A stretch of DNA of 64,000 nt from Gammaproteobacteria bacterium (lineage in GTDB: Bacteria; Pseudomonadota; Gammaproteobacteria; Pseudomonadales; Pseudomonadaceae): the NCBI GenBank assembly GCA_012728415.1, contig JAAYFD010000014.1, forward strand, positions 1-64,000, in the 5' to 3' direction. Made by a program: the position numbers and the translations under genes. The notes beneath the pieces are model-generated. The model was not told where the DNA came from and did no database searches. It saw only the letters and a program-made list of their open reading frames with translations. Positions 7,669 through 14,610 of this stretch are shown here, piece after piece (position 1 is the stretch's first letter; the number at the start of each line of letters is the position of its first letter).

Positions 7669-8021
7669 GTTTTAGTCCTCTTATGGTTAAGAGTTGCGCT
7701 ATGAGCCCACAGGCTACAACGCAAGTGCACGCAGGGTGCCATGCAACCCCGGCAGCGACCAGAGCATTTACCGACTCTTTGCATGGCCATGCTTTGATAT
7801 GGGCAACCGGCACGGGCGTACGGTTCTCGTCTGTCATGCTGTGAGTGGCGAAGCGTAGTCGCAGCATCCATGGGAATTGGCGGCATCCTGCAATGCATGG
7901 CTCGATGGGCCCTGCGACTACGCGCAGGATGACGGGGTACGCGAGGTGGTGGGGTGTGCGGAGCATGCAGGATGAAGTGCGCGCGCAGGGCAACGATCAT
8001 ACCTTTATATTGCAGACAGTT
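7669..8021. other. Intergenic gap with inverted repeat
   Basis: 353 bases between the RcnB-like gene and higA. No convincing coding frame: the open frames here are Arg/His/Pro-rich and lack a ribosome-binding site. The notable content is a pair of 12-base inverted arms at 7853-7864 and 7912-7923. The upstream signals of the RcnB-like gene presumably lie at its lower end. Confidence 0.5.
7853..7923. repeat. Inverted repeat, 12-base arms
   Basis: GCGTAGTCGCAG at 7853-7864 is perfectly complementary to CTGCGACTACGC at 7912-7923, separated by 47 bases that hold further ATGCATGG/CCATGGG-like sequence. It could fold as a cruciform or long hairpin and may be a dispersed palindromic element. Copy number cannot be seen here. 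Confidence 0.55.
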
Positions 8022-8336
8022 TCAGCTCGCAGTAAGGCAGGGGTTCAGCGGGCGGGCGTTGTTGTCTTCTGGGGTTTGGCTGCGGTTGCGCACGTCCCAT
8101 AGCTCGACCGCATGCTGGATGTTGAGCCAGAACTCGGGCGTGGTGCCCAGCGCAATCGCCAGTTTGATGGCCATGGGCGCGGTGAGCTGGCCCTTGTCGT
8201 GTACCAGCCGGCTGACGCTGTTGCGATGAACACCCATGGCATCGGCCAATTCGCTGATTTCCAGCTTGAGCGGCTGTAAAAACTCAGTGGTCAGCATTTC
8301 GCCAACGCTGACCGGGCGGCGTTTGGTAATTCTCAT
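8022..8336 (-). CDS. higA: HigA-family antitoxin
   Basis: 104-residue XRE-type DNA-binding antitoxin of the HigA/VapI group. The helix-turn-helix is about residues 27-60 (ISELADAMGVHRNSVSRLVH), followed by TPEFWLNIQHAVELWDV, a diagnostic HigA segment (usually xPEFWLNLQxxYDLW). Expected to neutralise HigB and repress the operon. Its ATG overlaps the higB stop by 4 bases, in the toxin-first order typical of higBA. The 20-residue tail after the conserved region varies in the family. Confidence 0.9.
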   Translation of the reverse strand: MRITKRRPVSVGEMLTTEFLQPLKLEISELADAMGVHRNSVSRLVHDKGQLTAPMAIKLAIALGTTPEFWLNIQHAVELWDVRNRSQTPEDNNARPLNPCLTAS

Positions 8337-8635
8337 AAGCTGATTCCTCTGTAGGTGTGTGGGTCAAGGCAGGCGTGTAGCACATGGCCGTCATGCCATC
8401 GAAAAATAATACGGTACTGCTTGTTCACCCGGATTGAGTACCAGCCTGTGAGATTACCTGCTAATGCTTCGAGCTGGTTACCTGGCGGGCTGCGCAGATC
8501 CATGACGTCTTTTGCCATGTCGAGCATTTGTAGCTTTCGATACAAAGTCGTGTGCAGGTTTGCCGGAATTTTTCGGTGCCTGCAATCCTCGAAATAAAAA
8601 TCTTCAAGCCATTTGTCCTTGAAATGGATAGCCAT
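8333..8635 (-). CDS. higB: HigB/RelE-family toxin
   Basis: 100 residues of the RelE superfamily of ribosome-associated mRNA endonucleases. Recognisable parts are the RKIP.....L.RKLQMLD helix pair, the LRSPPGNQLEAL segment, and the core strands GWYSIRVNKQYRIIFRW that carry the conserved arginines. Located directly upstream of higA and downstream of the restriction block on the same strand. Probably regulated by HigA binding upstream of 8635. Confidence 0.9.
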   Translation of the reverse strand: MAIHFKDKWLEDFYFEDCRHRKIPANLHTTLYRKLQMLDMAKDVMDLRSPPGNQLEALAGNLTGWYSIRVNKQYRIIFRWHDGHVLHACLDPHTYRGISL

Positions 8636-8722: not shown

Positions 8723-8941
8723 TCAGTTGGAGCAATTTTGCATTTTTGCTTGCGCTTCTGCGCGTAGTTCGTCGGCGCTGATGTGGGTGATTTTTCCGTC
8801 ACGGCTGATAACGATGCCGGTGTTGGTCTGGATTGCGGTTTCACGGGCCAGCTCGGCGGCGCGGAGTAGGGCATTGTAAGAATCCAATACCATCGGGTCT
8901 TTGATTTTGGAAATATCTACTGGGTCATTCATGGTTTTCAC
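8723..8941 (-). CDS. 72-residue protein coupled to Mrr
   Basis: Unrecognised small soluble protein, no signal or membrane segment. It has a helix-rich first half (DPMVLDSYNALLRAAELARE) and a short strand-like second half (GIVISRDGKITHISADELR). The ATG at 8941 overlaps the mrr stop by 4 bases, so it is almost certainly translated with mrr and not a chance frame. The shape (alpha-helical region plus a VxxRDGKI strand) resembles small antitoxin-like proteins, but that is an impression, not an assignment. Eighty-seven bases separate it from higB. It may regulate Mrr or be a separate passenger. Confidence 0.65.
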   Translation of the reverse strand: MKTMNDPVDISKIKDPMVLDSYNALLRAAELARETAIQTNTGIVISRDGKITHISADELRAEAQAKMQNCSN

Positions 8942-9864
8942 ACATCAAAATAATCCATATCAATCGCGGGCAGTTTCAGGATGCGGGAGCTGACTCCGAC
9001 TTCAGTATCCATCATCAACTCGACCAGTTTTGCGCCGTCAACCAGGACGATGCCTTCGACTGAGCGGGCAAATTCTGTGGCTTGGCTGGTAAAGCCGGAG
9101 GTGGTGATAAATACGCCGCGTTTGGCTTTTTGCCCGGCCAGTGCGCCGTAAAAAGCTTGCAATTCGGGACGGCCAACGGTGCCTTGCCAGCGTTTGGCCT
9201 GTACATACACTTTTTCCAGCCCCAGCTTGTCGAGCGAGATCACGCCGTCAATTCCGCCATCGCCACTGCCGCCAACCCGTTGTAAATCATGGCGGCTGAT
9301 GCCGTAACCCAGTCCGTGCAGCACGTCGAGAACGATGACTTCAAAACGGTTGGGGGAAACCCGTAGCAGGTTTTCCAGCAGTTCGTCGGCGGTGGCTTTG
9401 CGCAGTTCGGCCAGCGCTTGTTCTAGGCGGTCATCCGGGCTTTGGGTTGAGTCCTGTATGTTTTCTGACGGGGCTGGCTGTGGCCCGTTGTTCGCATTGC
9501 GGCTGGACAGCACCACATTGATATTGCTGGTTACGATCCGTGTGATTTCGTCCGTTGGGAGTTGCTGCGGATAGCGTTTGATCAGATCAAGCCCTGCCGG
9601 CGTCAACTGCCAGTGGCCACGTTGCGGACTGTCTGATAGTCCGGCGCGCTTGAGCCGATCATGTGCCCAGCCAGCACGGTTTTTGTAGGTTGCCTGCCGC
9701 CCGCTGTTCAAAGTTTCTTGTCGTTGTTCAGCGGTCAGTTGCAGGTAATCGGCTGCGGCATCATGCGCGTCTGCCGCCCGCATGCCGTCAGGCTTTTGCG
9801 CCAAAATCCGTAGCAGCGGTTCAACAAAGAGATCATAGGTGGGGATCGGGCGGGTCATTGTCAA
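8938..9864 (-). CDS. mrr: Mrr-type restriction endonuclease
   Basis: 308 residues. The N-terminal winged-helix domain (about 8-100; PTYDLFVEPLLRIL, AGWAHDRLKRAGL, GHWQLTPAGLDLI) is the Mrr_N DNA-recognition part. A variable linker precedes the PD-(D/E)XK catalytic domain (about 170-300) with GLGYGISRHDLQRVGG, GDGGIDGVI and the catalytic VQAKRW (Asp206, Gln222-x-Lys224), then GVFITTSGFTSQA. Mrr enzymes cut DNA carrying foreign methylation. The ATG overlaps the stop of the upstream MmeI-like gene by 4 bases, so methyltransferase and Mrr nuclease are co-translated. An Mrr that cut the partner's own methylated sites would be toxic, so specificities presumably differ, or Mrr is the partner's restriction subunit. 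Confidence 0.93.
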   Translation of the reverse strand: MTMTRPIPTYDLFVEPLLRILAQKPDGMRAADAHDAAADYLQLTAEQRQETLNSGRQATYKNRAGWAHDRLKRAGLSDSPQRGHWQLTPAGLDLIKRYPQQLPTDEITRIVTSNINVVLSSRNANNGPQPAPSENIQDSTQSPDDRLEQALAELRKATADELLENLLRVSPNRFEVIVLDVLHGLGYGISRHDLQRVGGSGDGGIDGVISLDKLGLEKVYVQAKRWQGTVGRPELQAFYGALAGQKAKRGVFITTSGFTSQATEFARSVEGIVLVDGAKLVELMMDTEVGVSSRILKLPAIDMDYFDV

Positions 9865-12800
9865 TTACCTCCTGCCAGGCTGTAGAGGCTGTCATCTTTT
9901 TGGGTGACGATGCCCAGCTCTTGCAGGGCGTCGAGGACGGACTGGACGGCATCCTGGCGTTTGCCGCGGAATTGGCTGGCGAGCTGTTCGGCGGTTTGCG
10001 GGCCGGTTTGCAGGGTGTTGCGTACGGCGCTGATTTGTTCGCGCATGGTTTTGGGCCAGGTGGATTTGCCGCTGGTGGCGGTTGCGGCAGGCGCGGTTTG
10101 GCTGCTGGTGTCGAGTTCGGCTTGTGTGCTGGTGGTTTGCTCCTGGTTCTGGCCGTAATTGGGGTCTTGGTATTCGGGGCGTAGCCAGCGGATGTTGCCC
10201 TGGGCTTCTTCGGCGGCGCGCTGGGCGTTGAGTTCGACCAGACGCTTGAGCAGTTCTTCTTCGGCGGCGGCCTGGGCTTCGGGTTTGTCGGGCAGCGGGG
10301 TGGTGGCTCCGGGCAGGCCGACCAGTTGTTCGGCCAGATCGTTCCAGCCGTAGGCGTCGAACACGGCGCGGTCGAGGTCGTCGTGCAACTCGCGCAGGAC
10401 GGAAACCAGTCCCTGTTCGTGGATGGTTTTTTCTTTGGCGGTTAGCGGTTCTTCGGCGCGCAATTTTTCCAGCACGTTGTACATGCCGGTTAATGTCAGG
10501 TCGGGGTGTTGTTCCTGCTGGCGTTTGCGGTGGGCGTCGAGACGTTCGGCCAGCTCGCGGATGGTTGTCTTTTGGGTTTCGCTGGCTTCGGGGAAGGGGA
10601 AGGTTTCGAAGCAATCGGTGTGGTTATAAGTGGGGTCATTGCCTATGCCTAAAGAAGCTCCTGAAGAAATCGCCCAGTAGCAATGAATTCTAGAGCCGAG
10701 GCAACCGAGCTTTAAAGCACTATCTAATGCGACTACAACGATTTTGCTTTCTGAAATATAAGAGGAGTCCAAAAACTGGAACACTCTATGTTTTGCTGTT
10801 CTGGTTGTTGCGATGTAACGATCTATGTTACTCACTGCATCTCTTAAGGCTTGTCCTGACCTTCTGAATAGCCACCACTTGCTAGCTGTCCGACTCTCCC
10901 TATTAAGGGCTCTTGAATCTTTTACTCGATCCAAAATAATTTGATACAAATTCGGATATTTTGCTCTGGCATCTGTATCACTAAAGCCATGCAGATCTAT
11001 AACGTAGAACTTAACAGTGCCATTTACTAGCTGGCTTCCGTTTAGGTATGGCTTCAGTACTTTTGTGTTTTCTTGGTCGTTAGTAATTATTGCTATTGCT
11101 TGCTCTTTTTCAATCAGAAAGCCTTGGTTTCCGAGTTCAAATCCTTTTATTGCTATTCCTTGATTTGATTGTAGTTGTTTGGCAGCAGTAACATTGGCGC
11201 CTGTTTTCAAGTCAGCAAACAGAATGCCGCGTTGCTCGCCCAACCGCACATCAATCTCATCCTGCACATTCTTGGATGCAGTTTCTTCCCGTACTTGCAG
11301 CAGGCGGCCTGTATCCACCGAGGTGCTGCCAACGGTCATGGCAATACGCACCGCTGCACCGTCCGCTGCATCAACCCAGGGGTGATCAGGGATGGCAAAG
11401 GCCAGCGACAGCGGGTTTTTCTTGGCTTCCAGCTGTGCCTGCACCACTCGGCGGTTGAAGGTTTGCTTGATGGAGTTGGTGGTAATAAAACCAAACTGTT
11501 GGGCGCTGCCAGCACGCACGGCTTCGGCGGCGATATGCCACCAGTACATGACAAAATCGGCAGACTCGGGGATTTCTTTCCAGGTGGAGCGCACGGCATC
11601 GACATAACCGTCGCCGAGGGCGCGGCGCATGGTGGAGGCACCAATAAACGGCGGGTTGCCGACAATATAATCCGCCTGCGGCCATTCGGCTTTGCGCGGA
11701 TTAATGTAGCGGTATTGCTCGATTTGTGCGGATTCGTCGGGCACGGGCTCGCCGGTGACGGGGCTGGTTTTGTAGGTGATGCCGTCCCAGCGGGTCAGCG
11801 GGCGGCCTTCATCGTCACAGAGCAGCTCTTGTGCATCGTAGTCGAGCAGGGCGTCGCGGTTTTCGATGTTTTTAAAGTCGCGCAGCACGGGTTCGGGCGG
11901 GTTGATTTTGCCGTGGGTGCGGTAGTGCCATTGCAGGTAGCCGATCCAGAGCACCATTTCGGCAATGCGGGCGGCGCGGGGGTTGATTTCCAGCCCGAGG
12001 AACTGGTGCGGGTCAACGGTTATGCCTTGTAGTTCTAATAAGCCCTGGGTTTCGCCCAAGTCGCCCAGCAAATTAAGCACTTCGCCTTCCAGACGTTTCA
12101 TGTGCTCCAGGGTGACGTAGAGGAAGTTGCCGCTGCCGCAGGCGGGGTCGAGGATGCGCAGTTCGCACAGGTGCTGGTGGAAGTTGCGCACTTCGGCGAC
12201 GGCCTGTTTGGGTTTGTTCTGGTTTTGGTAGGCCAGCGCGGCGGTTTGTACGTCTTGCCATTCTTTGCGCAGCGGTTCGATGACGGTGGGCAGCACCAGC
12301 CGTTCGACATAGGCGCGGGGTGTGTAGTGGGCACCCAGTTTGTGGCGTTCACGCGGGTCGAGCGCGCGTTCCAGCAAGGTACCGAAAATGGCCGGTTCTA
12401 CATAGGTCCAGTCGGCAGCAGCGGCTTTAAGCAATAATTCGATCTGGTCGCGGTTAAGCGGCAGCGCCTGCGGGCTGGCGAACAGGCCGCCGTTAAAGCG
12501 CAGGACGCTGCTTTCCAGAATGGGTGAAAAGCCGCCCTGGTTCATGCTGTGCCACAGGTTTTCCAGCATGGGGGCGAAGTTGTCGGGGTTGCTTTGCAGA
12601 CGCTTGAGCAGGTCGGCAAAGCTGTGGGCGGGCAGCAGGCCGACGTCTTCGGCAAACATGGTGAACAGGGCGCGCATCATGAAGTCGGCGACGTGCTGGG
12701 CGGGGTGGCCGTCGGCTTCGAGGGATTTGGCCAGTTTGGCCAGCTGGTCGGCAATTTCGCGGGTGACGCGGGCGGACTCGCGGCTGGGGTCGAGCGCCAG

Positions 12801-13349
12801 CGGGTTGAGCCAGACCTGGCGCAGGCGCTGCTGGATCTCGGGCCGGGTCAGCTGTTGCAGGCTGATGCGGTGGCTGCGCGCATCGGGAAACGGCGTGTAG
12901 GTTGCGCCAGAGCGGGAAAATTCGGCGTATAACTCGATGCTGCGGCCTACGTCGGTGACGACGATAAAGGGCGGTCGGCCTTCGTCGCTGGGCAGGGCGC
13001 GGACGTATTGGTCGGCCTGATTGTGGGCGCGGAGCATGGCGCGGTCCCAGCCGCCGGTTTCCATGTTGAGGCCGCTTTGTTTGGCTTCGAGCACAAAACA
13101 GCCGCGTTTGTAGAGGTCGATAAAGCCGTTGCTGGTGCTGCCGTCGGGCTTGTTGATGATGACGCGGCGCTCAAACACATAGGCGTTGTCGCGGGTGTCG
13201 TCGCTAGCGGGGTCGGCCTTGGGCAACTCCAGCAGTTCGCACAGCTCCATCAAAAATAGCTGGTAGTTGGCGCGTTCGCTGCCGCCGCCTTCTTGCCAGC
13301 GGGTGATGAAATTGTCGGTGGCTTCCGGGTTTGGCTTCCAAGTTTCCAT
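9861..13349 (-). CDS. MmeI-like (type IIL) restriction-methylation enzyme
   Basis: 1162 residues from ATG at 13349 (a frame extension to 13406 exists). Near the N-terminus, FIDLYKRGCFVLEAK holds D78-x9-E88-A-K90, the same spacing as the nuclease motif of MmeI. A helical spacer follows, then an adenine N6-methyltransferase domain with the SAM motif DPACGSGNF (about 400) and catalytic NPPF (about 563). The central-distal region should be the target-recognition domain. After it come a low-complexity Q/T/S/A linker and a winged-helix-like end (about 1095-1162: EQISAVRNTLQTGPQTAEQL). MmeI itself is 919 residues, so this is extended. First gene of an overlapping operon with mrr. Expected to methylate one strand of its site and cut at a fixed distance; recognition sequence unknown. 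Confidence 0.88.
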   Translation of the reverse strand: METWKPNPEATDNFITRWQEGGGSERANYQLFLMELCELLELPKADPASDDTRDNAYVFERRVIINKPDGSTSNGFIDLYKRGCFVLEAKQSGLNMETGGWDRAMLRAHNQADQYVRALPSDEGRPPFIVVTDVGRSIELYAEFSRSGATYTPFPDARSHRISLQQLTRPEIQQRLRQVWLNPLALDPSRESARVTREIADQLAKLAKSLEADGHPAQHVADFMMRALFTMFAEDVGLLPAHSFADLLKRLQSNPDNFAPMLENLWHSMNQGGFSPILESSVLRFNGGLFASPQALPLNRDQIELLLKAAAADWTYVEPAIFGTLLERALDPRERHKLGAHYTPRAYVERLVLPTVIEPLRKEWQDVQTAALAYQNQNKPKQAVAEVRNFHQHLCELRILDPACGSGNFLYVTLEHMKRLEGEVLNLLGDLGETQGLLELQGITVDPHQFLGLEINPRAARIAEMVLWIGYLQWHYRTHGKINPPEPVLRDFKNIENRDALLDYDAQELLCDDEGRPLTRWDGITYKTSPVTGEPVPDESAQIEQYRYINPRKAEWPQADYIVGNPPFIGASTMRRALGDGYVDAVRSTWKEIPESADFVMYWWHIAAEAVRAGSAQQFGFITTNSIKQTFNRRVVQAQLEAKKNPLSLAFAIPDHPWVDAADGAAVRIAMTVGSTSVDTGRLLQVREETASKNVQDEIDVRLGEQRGILFADLKTGANVTAAKQLQSNQGIAIKGFELGNQGFLIEKEQAIAIITNDQENTKVLKPYLNGSQLVNGTVKFYVIDLHGFSDTDARAKYPNLYQIILDRVKDSRALNRESRTASKWWLFRRSGQALRDAVSNIDRYIATTRTAKHRVFQFLDSSYISESKIVVVALDSALKLGCLGSRIHCYWAISSGASLGIGNDPTYNHTDCFETFPFPEASETQKTTIRELAERLDAHRKRQQEQHPDLTLTGMYNVLEKLRAEEPLTAKEKTIHEQGLVSVLRELHDDLDRAVFDAYGWNDLAEQLVGLPGATTPLPDKPEAQAAAEEELLKRLVELNAQRAAEEAQGNIRWLRPEYQDPNYGQNQEQTTSTQAELDTSSQTAPAATATSGKSTWPKTMREQISAVRNTLQTGPQTAEQLASQFRGKRQDAVQSVLDALQELGIVTQKDDSLYSLAGGN

Positions 13350-14198: not shown

Positions 14199-14610
14199 TG
14201 GTGAGTCGACTGGCCGCTGCTTTTGCGGGCATCGGTCAGTTGGCCGCTTGCCAGGGTTGAGCAGACCAAGTGTAAATACTCATCGTCTCAACAACGATGT
14301 TGTTATCGGATGTATCAAGAACTTGCTTGCTAGCGTTAAACTCGGCAAAACCCACCTCATCCAGGCGCTGGCCTAAACTCCCGAGCAGCAAGGCAATCAG
14401 TCACCAACAGGCTTGCACTCGCAGGAAAGCACCGCGACAGCATCCAGTCATCAACAATGGCGGGACAAACCCTCCCCCTGCACAAGGTTTATTAGGTCCG
14501 GACAGGACCAGAGTCAGGCATTAGCGGTTCGTGGCAGCTTGCTGACACGGACAAGCGTCAGTCTGGCGCAGTGTCCTGCCCTGACCAGACACCGTAATGC
14601 AAAATCGCAG
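14199..14610. other. Intergenic gap, possible minus-strand gene remnant
   Basis: 412 bases between the PfpI and GNAT genes. No gene with a start and ribosome-binding site is visible. On the minus strand 14400-14236 an open, startless frame of 54 codons ends in TGA and reads like protein (for example GQRLDEVGFAEFNASKQVLD, later ETMSIYTWSAQPWQ), so it may be the 3' end of a lost gene. The rest holds nothing I can name. Confidence 0.35.

What the first reader, a model, noticed from the sequence alone, without database searches (positions are those of the whole stretch)
8723..13349. Overlapping operon of MmeI-like enzyme, Mrr and a 72-residue protein
Three genes are joined by two 4-base overlaps (ATGA). 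The first has both a D-x9-ExK nuclease site and an adenine methyltransferase, so it is a complete restriction-modification enzyme; the second is an Mrr nuclease, which in other cases attacks modified DNA. Pairing a self-sufficient enzyme with Mrr and a tiny third partner is an unusual layout, and the small protein might hold Mrr in check. This is the best candidate for a little-described system here.
Basis: partly seen in the sequence, partly recalled or inferred. Interest (0 to 1): 0.65.

Follow-up and report, generated by a model that had tools for sequence, protein, structure and literature searches.

The report
Restriction operon with stray kinase partner
A common DNA-cutting defence enzyme and a common Mrr nuclease share an operon with a tiny protein that, elsewhere, usually accompanies a toxin-like kinase and often lies inside other restriction operons, so this trio looks like a rare assembly of known parts plus one little-noticed, still unnamed protein family.

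Summary
Three co-directional genes exist as described, but neither junction is ATGA: they read TTGA and GTGA, and in-frame ATGs a few bases on (gaps of 2 and 5 nt) are equally or more likely starts. Gene 1 is a complete MmeI-like Type IIG restriction-methylase; gene 2 is an intact Mrr, 66% identical to an E. coli copy. Both are common apart. The trio was found nowhere else: the small gene is in 0 of 80 named loci of gene 1 relatives and 0 of 29 Mrr loci. An MmeI-type enzyme directly beside an Mrr recurs, with different members, in two other genomes. The small gene belongs to a family unnamed in Pfam, NCBIfam and PADLOC, which in 28 of 40 loci lies right after a zeta-toxin-like kinase, usually with a 4-nt overlap, often near Type I or III restriction genes, and in two genomes fused to the kinase. 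Here no such kinase was found in the assembly and Mrr stands in its place. Most likely the small protein is an orphaned kinase inhibitor. That it restrains Mrr, or acts on restriction enzymes generally, is possible but little supported. The kinase-plus-small-protein module in restriction operons is the better lead.

The parts
9861..13349 (-). MmeI-like Type IIG restriction endonuclease-methyltransferase, 1162 aa
   Evidence: Pfam MmeI_N, MmeI_hel, MmeI_Mtase, MmeI_TRD; PADLOC PDLC03627 REase_MTase_IIG, 1562.7 bits over aa 11-1156; phmmer to MmeI chain 5hr4_C E 2.9e-44
13080..13118 (-). D-x9-ExK nuclease site (aa 78-90)
   Evidence: of the 80 named loci 57 gave an ORF over 900 aa with motif I, and 53 of those 57 have a D-x9-ExK in the first 250 residues
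12123..12149 (-). methyltransferase motif I DPACGSGNF (aa 401-409)
11646..11657 (-). methyltransferase motif IV NPPF (aa 565-568)
8938..9858 (-). Mrr-type (Type IV) nuclease, 306 aa from ATG 9858 (308 aa if TTG 9864)
   Evidence: Pfam Mrr_N and Mrr_cat; PADLOC mREase_IV 389.8 bits; 66% identical to an E. coli copy, D...QxK kept
9868..9873 (-). AGGAGG ribosome-binding-like site before Mrr, 9 nt from ATG 9858 and 3 nt from TTG 9864
   Evidence: sequence
8723..8941 (-). small protein, 72 aa from GTG 8941 (69 aa from ATG 8932); member of an unnamed family usually coupled to a zeta-toxin-like kinase
   Evidence: no family above cut-off in Pfam and none in PADLOC or NCBIfam; relatives and their neighbours; predicted helix, beta-hairpin, helix
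8022..8635 (-). HigBA-type toxin-antitoxin pair just downstream (HigB-like 8333-8635, HigA-like 8022-8336); neighbour, not part of the unit

Best explanation
The locus is a compact restriction cluster assembled from common parts. Gene 1 cuts unmethylated DNA and marks the host's own sites with N6-methyladenine. Mrr, probably translated from the same message, cuts DNA carrying modification patterns foreign to the host; together they attack phages with and without foreign methylation (inferred). The small third protein is an orphan of a two-gene module, a zeta-toxin-like kinase followed by a translationally coupled small protein, that is often carried inside Type I and Type III restriction operons. 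There the small protein most likely binds and restrains the kinase (inferred from coupling, fusion and the pattern of loss). In this genome no such kinase is found and Mrr sits at the kinase's position, so the small protein is either a leftover or now protects the cell against kinases arriving with other restriction modules. Shown: domains, motifs, coupling, fusions, association with restriction genes, no detected kinase of this kind in the assembly. Inferred: every biochemical activity, co-transcription, and the inhibitor role.
For: The small-protein family follows a zeta-like kinase directly in 28 of 40 fetched loci (class 15 of 17, order 4 of 4, phylum 9 of 19). In 21 of 27 measured junctions (26 of those loci plus Synechocystis pSYSG) a start codon overlaps the kinase stop by 4 nt. 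In G396 (L193) and G469 (L194) kinase and small protein are one ORF. From the kinase side, 7 of 7 close kinases (E < 1e-60; all at loci already known from the small gene) have the small gene next, against 1 weak match (E 0.0012) among the 8 weaker kinase matches, one of which ends at a contig edge. The two kinases scanned pass Pfam's Zeta_toxin cut-off (33.2 and 34.6 against 22.3 bits). Type I or III restriction genes lie in 18 of 40 small-gene loci and in 0 of 20 other 13-kb stretches from genomes of the same set; the nine query proteins carry DNA methylase, ResIII, HsdM, HsdS or HsdR domains. Kinase decay with the small gene kept: in G713 (L235) about 400 nt of the kinase are missing relative to G677 (L233) of the same genus at the same place, and the kinase is interrupted or partial in L020, L032, L034 and L222. 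No kinase of this kind in the own assembly. The Mrr-small junction (GTG -4, ATG +5) has the layout of the kinase-small junction of L021 (TTG -4, ATG +5).
Against: No experiment shows that the kinase is toxic or that the small protein inhibits it. The assembly is 90% complete, so a kinase could be missed; the general Zeta_toxin profile does match three places of the own genome over its cut-off, each only part of the profile inside ORFs of 355-464 aa, and it also rings in all 14 control genomes, so it is not specific. 12 of 40 loci have no kinase beside the small gene (two end at a contig edge, one is a truncated copy), and some of those lie in restriction operons, which suggests a role of its own: L023 before HsdM, L226 and L229 before Mod, L238 before HsdR (weak match). 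22 of 40 loci showed no Type I or III restriction gene at the threshold used. The predicted shape resembles no known antitoxin convincingly: best Foldseek E 0.25, from a single-sequence model with pTM 0.46.
Confidence: 0.55

Rival explanations
1. The small protein is a general accessory of restriction operons that acts on the restriction-modification enzyme itself (assembly, timing or restraint of cutting); the zeta-like kinase is a separate passenger that often travels with it.
For: Copies without a visible kinase sit beside restriction genes: L023 (4-nt overlap with HsdM), L229 and L226 (just before Mod), L238 (before HsdR, in a locus that also matches HsdM), and the window.
Against: Kinase and small protein are fused in two genomes that show no restriction gene nearby at the threshold used (L193, L194); none of the four order-level loci shows one, though L191 is only 3.4 kb long; the neighbours span Type I, Type III and IIG enzymes with no shared subunit. 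L226 ends 250 nt upstream, so a kinase there cannot be excluded, and L238 is a weak match (E 4.5e-6).
Confidence: 0.2
2. One reading: the small protein is a dedicated inhibitor of Mrr, needed because the neighbouring enzyme makes N6-methyladenine that Mrr could attack.
For: The gene is coupled directly to mrr here. Mrr of E. coli is activated by foreign adenine methyltransferases (PMC3874153 and PMC12707154, passages read), so an operon with both needs compatibility.
Against: 0 of 18 class-level, 0 of 9 family-level and 0 of 2 plasmid-collection Mrr loci examined carry the small gene, including the two with an MmeI-type enzyme in tandem (L303, L181); compatibility can come from sequence specificity alone. 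Relatives of the small protein mostly accompany a kinase.
Confidence: 0.1
3. Plain accretion: three unrelated defence genes landed side by side in a variable site; the small gene is a decaying leftover with no current function.
For: The gene after gene 1 differs from relative to relative among the named loci; a HigBA pair follows immediately; the flanking genes are not kept together in the same-genus genome G847.
Against: The small ORF is intact, with the family's conserved alanine/arginine pattern kept, and is coupled to mrr.
Confidence: 0.15

Closest known systems
MmeI and the MmeI-like Type IIG (IIL) restriction-modification enzymes
   Same: Single chain with PD-ExK nuclease, helical spacer, adenine methyltransferase and target recognition domain, in MmeI order; PADLOC REase_MTase_IIG match over nearly the full length.
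   Different: 1162 aa against 919 for MmeI chain 5hr4_C; Pfam's MmeI_C domain was not found; only 154 bits to MmeI itself. At least 585 pattern-matched stretches of genome contigs encode a relative, so this version is common.
Mrr, Type IV restriction enzyme of E. coli
   Same: Mrr_N plus Mrr_cat, D...QxK, 66% identity over the whole protein.
   Different: Here directly behind a Type IIG gene; in E. coli it lies in the immigration control region with Type I genes (PMC12707154, passages read; the record matched here carries no annotation at that place).
E. coli immigration control region; plasmid island with BREX and Type IV restriction
   Same: Modification-blocked and modification-dependent restriction side by side (PMC12707154, passages read; PMC8565348, title and start of abstract seen in the listing).
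   Different: Other enzyme types, and no translational coupling known to me (recalled).
Epsilon-zeta / PezAT toxin-antitoxin systems
   Same: The relatives' kinase matches Zeta_toxin; a small partner is coupled to it.
   Different: The small protein matches no Pfam family above cut-off and comes after the kinase, whereas epsilon and PezA precede it (recalled). In the window there is no kinase.
Zeta toxin gene and 59-aa ORF on Synechocystis plasmid pSYSG
   Same: Kinase and small gene with ATGA overlap, one gene downstream of an annotated Type I specificity gene.
   Different: The 2016 survey of Synechocystis toxin-antitoxin systems mentions sll8004 and ssl8003 only among genes related to such modules that did not meet its criteria (PMC4963859, passages read; that these tags are this pair is my inference from gene order).

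Membership tests
MmeI family proper | MmeI_N, MmeI_hel, MmeI_Mtase and MmeI_TRD domains in this order | tested here: met
   all four above the curated cut-off
MmeI family proper | MmeI_C domain at the C-terminus | tested here: not met
   not listed up to E = 1, though found in L181's enzyme; therefore filed as MmeI-like Type IIG, not as MmeI family in the strict sense
Type IIG restriction-modification enzyme | nuclease and adenine methyltransferase catalytic motifs in one chain | tested here: met
Type IIG restriction-modification enzyme | cuts and methylates a defined target sequence | not testable with these tools
   needs long-read methylation data or purified enzyme
Mrr Type IV restriction enzyme | Mrr_N plus Mrr_cat with D...QxK | tested here: met
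Mrr Type IV restriction enzyme | acts on modified DNA | not testable with these tools
   reported for E. coli Mrr and a few relatives (passages)
Zeta toxin-antitoxin module | zeta-type kinase beside the small gene in the window | tested here: not met
   the next gene is mrr; no kinase of this kind in the own assembly (general profile matches lie in longer ORFs)
Zeta toxin-antitoxin module | small partner of a known zeta-antitoxin family (epsilon, PezA) | tested here: not met
   no Pfam match above cut-off for the window's or four relatives' small proteins
Small-protein family described here (partner of zeta-like kinase) | sequence relation to the kinase-coupled small proteins | tested here: met
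   relatives found by the window sequence alone at E down to 5.1e-13; alignment A1

The most novel reading that the evidence does not exclude
Restriction operons carry a second, cell-directed effector slot next to a common small inhibitor: usually a zeta-like kinase, here Mrr. The small protein would keep whichever effector occupies the slot silent while the restriction-modification enzyme is intact, and release it when the enzyme is lost or disabled by a phage; Mrr would have replaced the kinase in the slot.
Probability: 0.1. Interest if true: 0.75.

Novelty: new variant of a known kind. Interest (0 to 1): 0.38.

Why it matters
The trio itself is ordinary parts in a rare order. What matters is the lead behind the third gene: a small protein family without a name in three libraries, coupled or fused to a zeta-toxin-like kinase and often lodged among the genes of Type I and Type III restriction systems. 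If it is a toxin-antitoxin or guard module, many restriction operons contain a built-in abortive component that the PADLOC library used here does not list, and the window shows what remains when the kinase is lost. The pairing of an adenine-methylating Type IIG enzyme with Mrr, an enzyme known to react to foreign adenine methylation, also makes the question of how the two are kept compatible directly testable.

Tried and rejected
Searched and led nowhere: the window's small protein in plasmids (no match) and viral contigs (none); the kinase in viral contigs (none) and phages (4 distant records); solved structures for Mrr (none) and for the small profile (two chance-level rows); Foldseek with the small model (best E 0.25). 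Rfam on the whole window gave only one tRNA at the gathering threshold.

Rejected: conserved trio; ATGA overlaps; an empty-site test for island insertion, because the flanks lie far apart and on opposite strands in G847 and on separate contigs in G861 and G872. G861 holds the first 195 residues of a 94% identical gene 1, but its contig ends there, so whether that relative has the trio is unknown.

Limits: searches by one protein find mainly closer relatives. One search was a DNA search and misses diverged copies. Profile A1 contains the window's small protein and 12 relatives, so their later scores are partly by construction; the first detection used the window sequence alone. The kinase profile was built from such loci too. 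Nine restriction proteins used as queries came from seven of the 40 loci (a tenth query was gene 1 of the window); leaving those seven out gives 11 of 33 against 0 of 20. One of the 18 (L026) is a 71-residue match only. I fetched flanks for 18 of the 25 Mrr matches outside the own genome and for 19 of the 23 non-own small-gene matches of the phylum search, leaving out the four weakest. L027 holds two small genes, only one of them behind a kinase.
Full report
OBSERVATION. The three ORFs are present on the - strand. Reading the junctions, gene 1 (13349-9861) ends TGA at 9863-9861. Mrr can start at TTG 9864, overlapping by TTGA, or at ATG 9858, 2 nt after the stop; AGGAGG at 9873-9868 is 9 nt from the ATG and 3 nt from the TTG, which favours the ATG. 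Mrr ends TGA at 8940-8938; the small gene can start at GTG 8941 (GTGA) or ATG 8932 (5-nt gap). So the genes are tightly packed and plausibly co-translated, but no ATGA overlap exists at either junction.

GENE 1. Pfam finds MmeI_N, MmeI_hel, MmeI_Mtase and MmeI_TRD, not MmeI_C. PADLOC's Type IIG model PDLC03627 matches aa 11-1156 with 1562.7 bits. D-x9-ExK lies at aa 78, motif I at aa 401, NPPF at aa 565. It is a complete, common Type IIG enzyme: 11 of 369 sampled genomes of the class, the own one included, match at E <= 1e-100, and at least 585 stretches of genome contigs encode a relative, of which the best 80 loci were fetched. In those 80, and in 9 unnamed loci, no small gene and no kinase is found by tblastn or by profile, and only two show any Mrr-like stretch (L102 about 6.5 kb away and inverted; L135 2.7 kb downstream, mainly the catalytic part). 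What follows gene 1 varies from relative to relative.

GENE 2. Mrr_N and Mrr_cat, D...QxK intact, 66% identical to the Mrr of an E. coli record and 64-71% to four other copies, 36% to the copy in L303. 25 of 369 class genomes, the own one included, carry a relative at E <= 1e-30. In 18 fetched class loci, two plasmid-collection loci and 9 family loci none has the small gene or the kinase, also by profile. Two of these 29 have an MmeI-type enzyme in tandem: L303 (G856), enzyme then Mrr with a 43-nt gap; and L181 (G268), Mrr then an enzyme with all five MmeI domains, about 25 nt apart. In L289 (G898) a 69% identical enzyme and a 69% identical Mrr lie about 3.4 kb apart with other genes between. 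The pairing has therefore probably arisen more than once but is rare.

GENE 3. No model in Pfam reaches a cut-off and none in PADLOC or NCBIfam matches the window's protein; the relatives tested gave nothing above cut-off either. The window sequence alone finds the family in 17 of 369 class genomes, the own one included. A profile (A1) finds it in 5 of 115 genomes of the order and 22 of 398 of the phylum, the own one included each time. I fetched flanks for 40 such loci outside the own genome.

NEIGHBOURS OF GENE 3 ELSEWHERE. In 28 of 40 loci the gene before it is a roughly 170-aa P-loop protein of the Zeta_toxin kind. In 21 of 27 measured junctions (26 of these loci plus Synechocystis plasmid pSYSG) a start codon overlaps the kinase stop by 4 nt. 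In G396 and G469 the two are one ORF. Searching 175 class genomes from the kinase side, the 7 best loci all have the small gene next, against one weak match among the 8 others, one of which ends at a contig edge; the kinase profile was built from such loci and the seven were already known, so this is a consistency check, not independent proof. Type I or Type III restriction genes lie in 18 of 40 of the loci (class 12 of 17, order 0 of 4, phylum 6 of 19) and in 0 of 20 other stretches from genomes of the same set. In four loci (L020, L025, L029, L035) the pair stands between Mod and Res, in L029 with one more small ORF. None of the 40 loci has a match to gene 1 or to Mrr. The small gene outlasts the kinase: between the same two genes in one genus, L235 lacks about 400 nt of the kinase that L233 has, and in L020, L032, L034 and L222 the kinase is interrupted or partial (sequencing errors not excluded). 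Twelve loci have no kinase; L226 and L231 end at a contig edge and L031 is a truncated copy. L023, L226, L229 and, by a weak match, L238 keep the small gene beside restriction genes without a visible kinase.

THE WINDOW IN THIS LIGHT. The own assembly (90% complete) has no match to this kinase (no positive control in that call, where other genomes do match). The general Zeta_toxin profile rings at three places in ORFs of 355-464 aa, each over part of the profile, but it rings in all 14 control genomes too. The Mrr-small junction has the same layout as a kinase-small junction (L021: TTG at -4, ATG at +5; window: GTG at -4, ATG at +5). The simplest reading is that the small gene lost its kinase and now stands behind Mrr.

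MECHANISM. Most likely (inferred) gene 1 restricts unmodified DNA and protects the host by adenine methylation; Mrr adds attack on DNA with foreign modification; the small protein is an orphaned inhibitor of zeta-like kinases. Mrr of E. coli reacts to foreign adenine and cytosine methyltransferases and can damage the host (PMC3874153 and PMC12707154, passages read), so compatibility of this Mrr with gene 1's mark is required, but sequence specificity can give that without an inhibitor. The predicted small protein is a long helix, a beta-hairpin and a second helix (pLDDT 78.5, pTM 0.46, single sequence), with no confident structural neighbour.

LITERATURE. Seven searches of the open library gave no title or abstract start, and two papers opened by passages no passage, that describes this kinase-small module inside restriction operons; the Synechocystis survey names what appears to be the pSYSG pair only as not meeting its criteria (PMC4963859, passages read). 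Subscription papers are mostly not in that library. Searches around MmeI and Mrr listed reviews and single-system papers; I opened three reviews by passages.

VERDICT. Observation partly right; the trio is not a conserved system in what was searched; the small protein is not a dedicated Mrr partner on present evidence. The restriction-associated kinase-partner family is the lead worth keeping.

Noticed in passing
window 14430-14604: Dispersed repeat of about 175 bp: 23 further matching places (67-87% identical) in the own genome and some in the same-genus genomes G861 and G847.
   Followed up: no
window 7831-7938: A second short stretch that matches one other place in the own genome and five in G861.
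   Followed up: no
window 8022-8635: HigBA-type toxin-antitoxin pair with a 4-nt overlap directly downstream of the trio on the same strand.
   Followed up: no
L193 6151-6885 and L194 5681-6409: Zeta-like kinase and small protein fused in one ORF.
   Followed up: partly
L233, L236, L235: A kinase-small pair inserted between two adjacent metabolic genes (they look like sucC and sucD, by eye); in L235 most of the kinase is missing and the small gene kept.
   Followed up: partly
L238 6250-6687: 145-aa protein whose N-terminus weakly resembles the small protein and whose C-terminus is a HicB-like antitoxin domain, just before an HsdR gene.
   Followed up: no
L059-L138, downstream of the MTase: The position just behind this Type IIG gene carries many different genes, often close and co-directional, as if it were an accessory slot.
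   Followed up: partly
L181 6427-7323 and 7355-10147: Mrr directly followed by an enzyme with all five MmeI domains, the reverse order of the window.
   Followed up: partly
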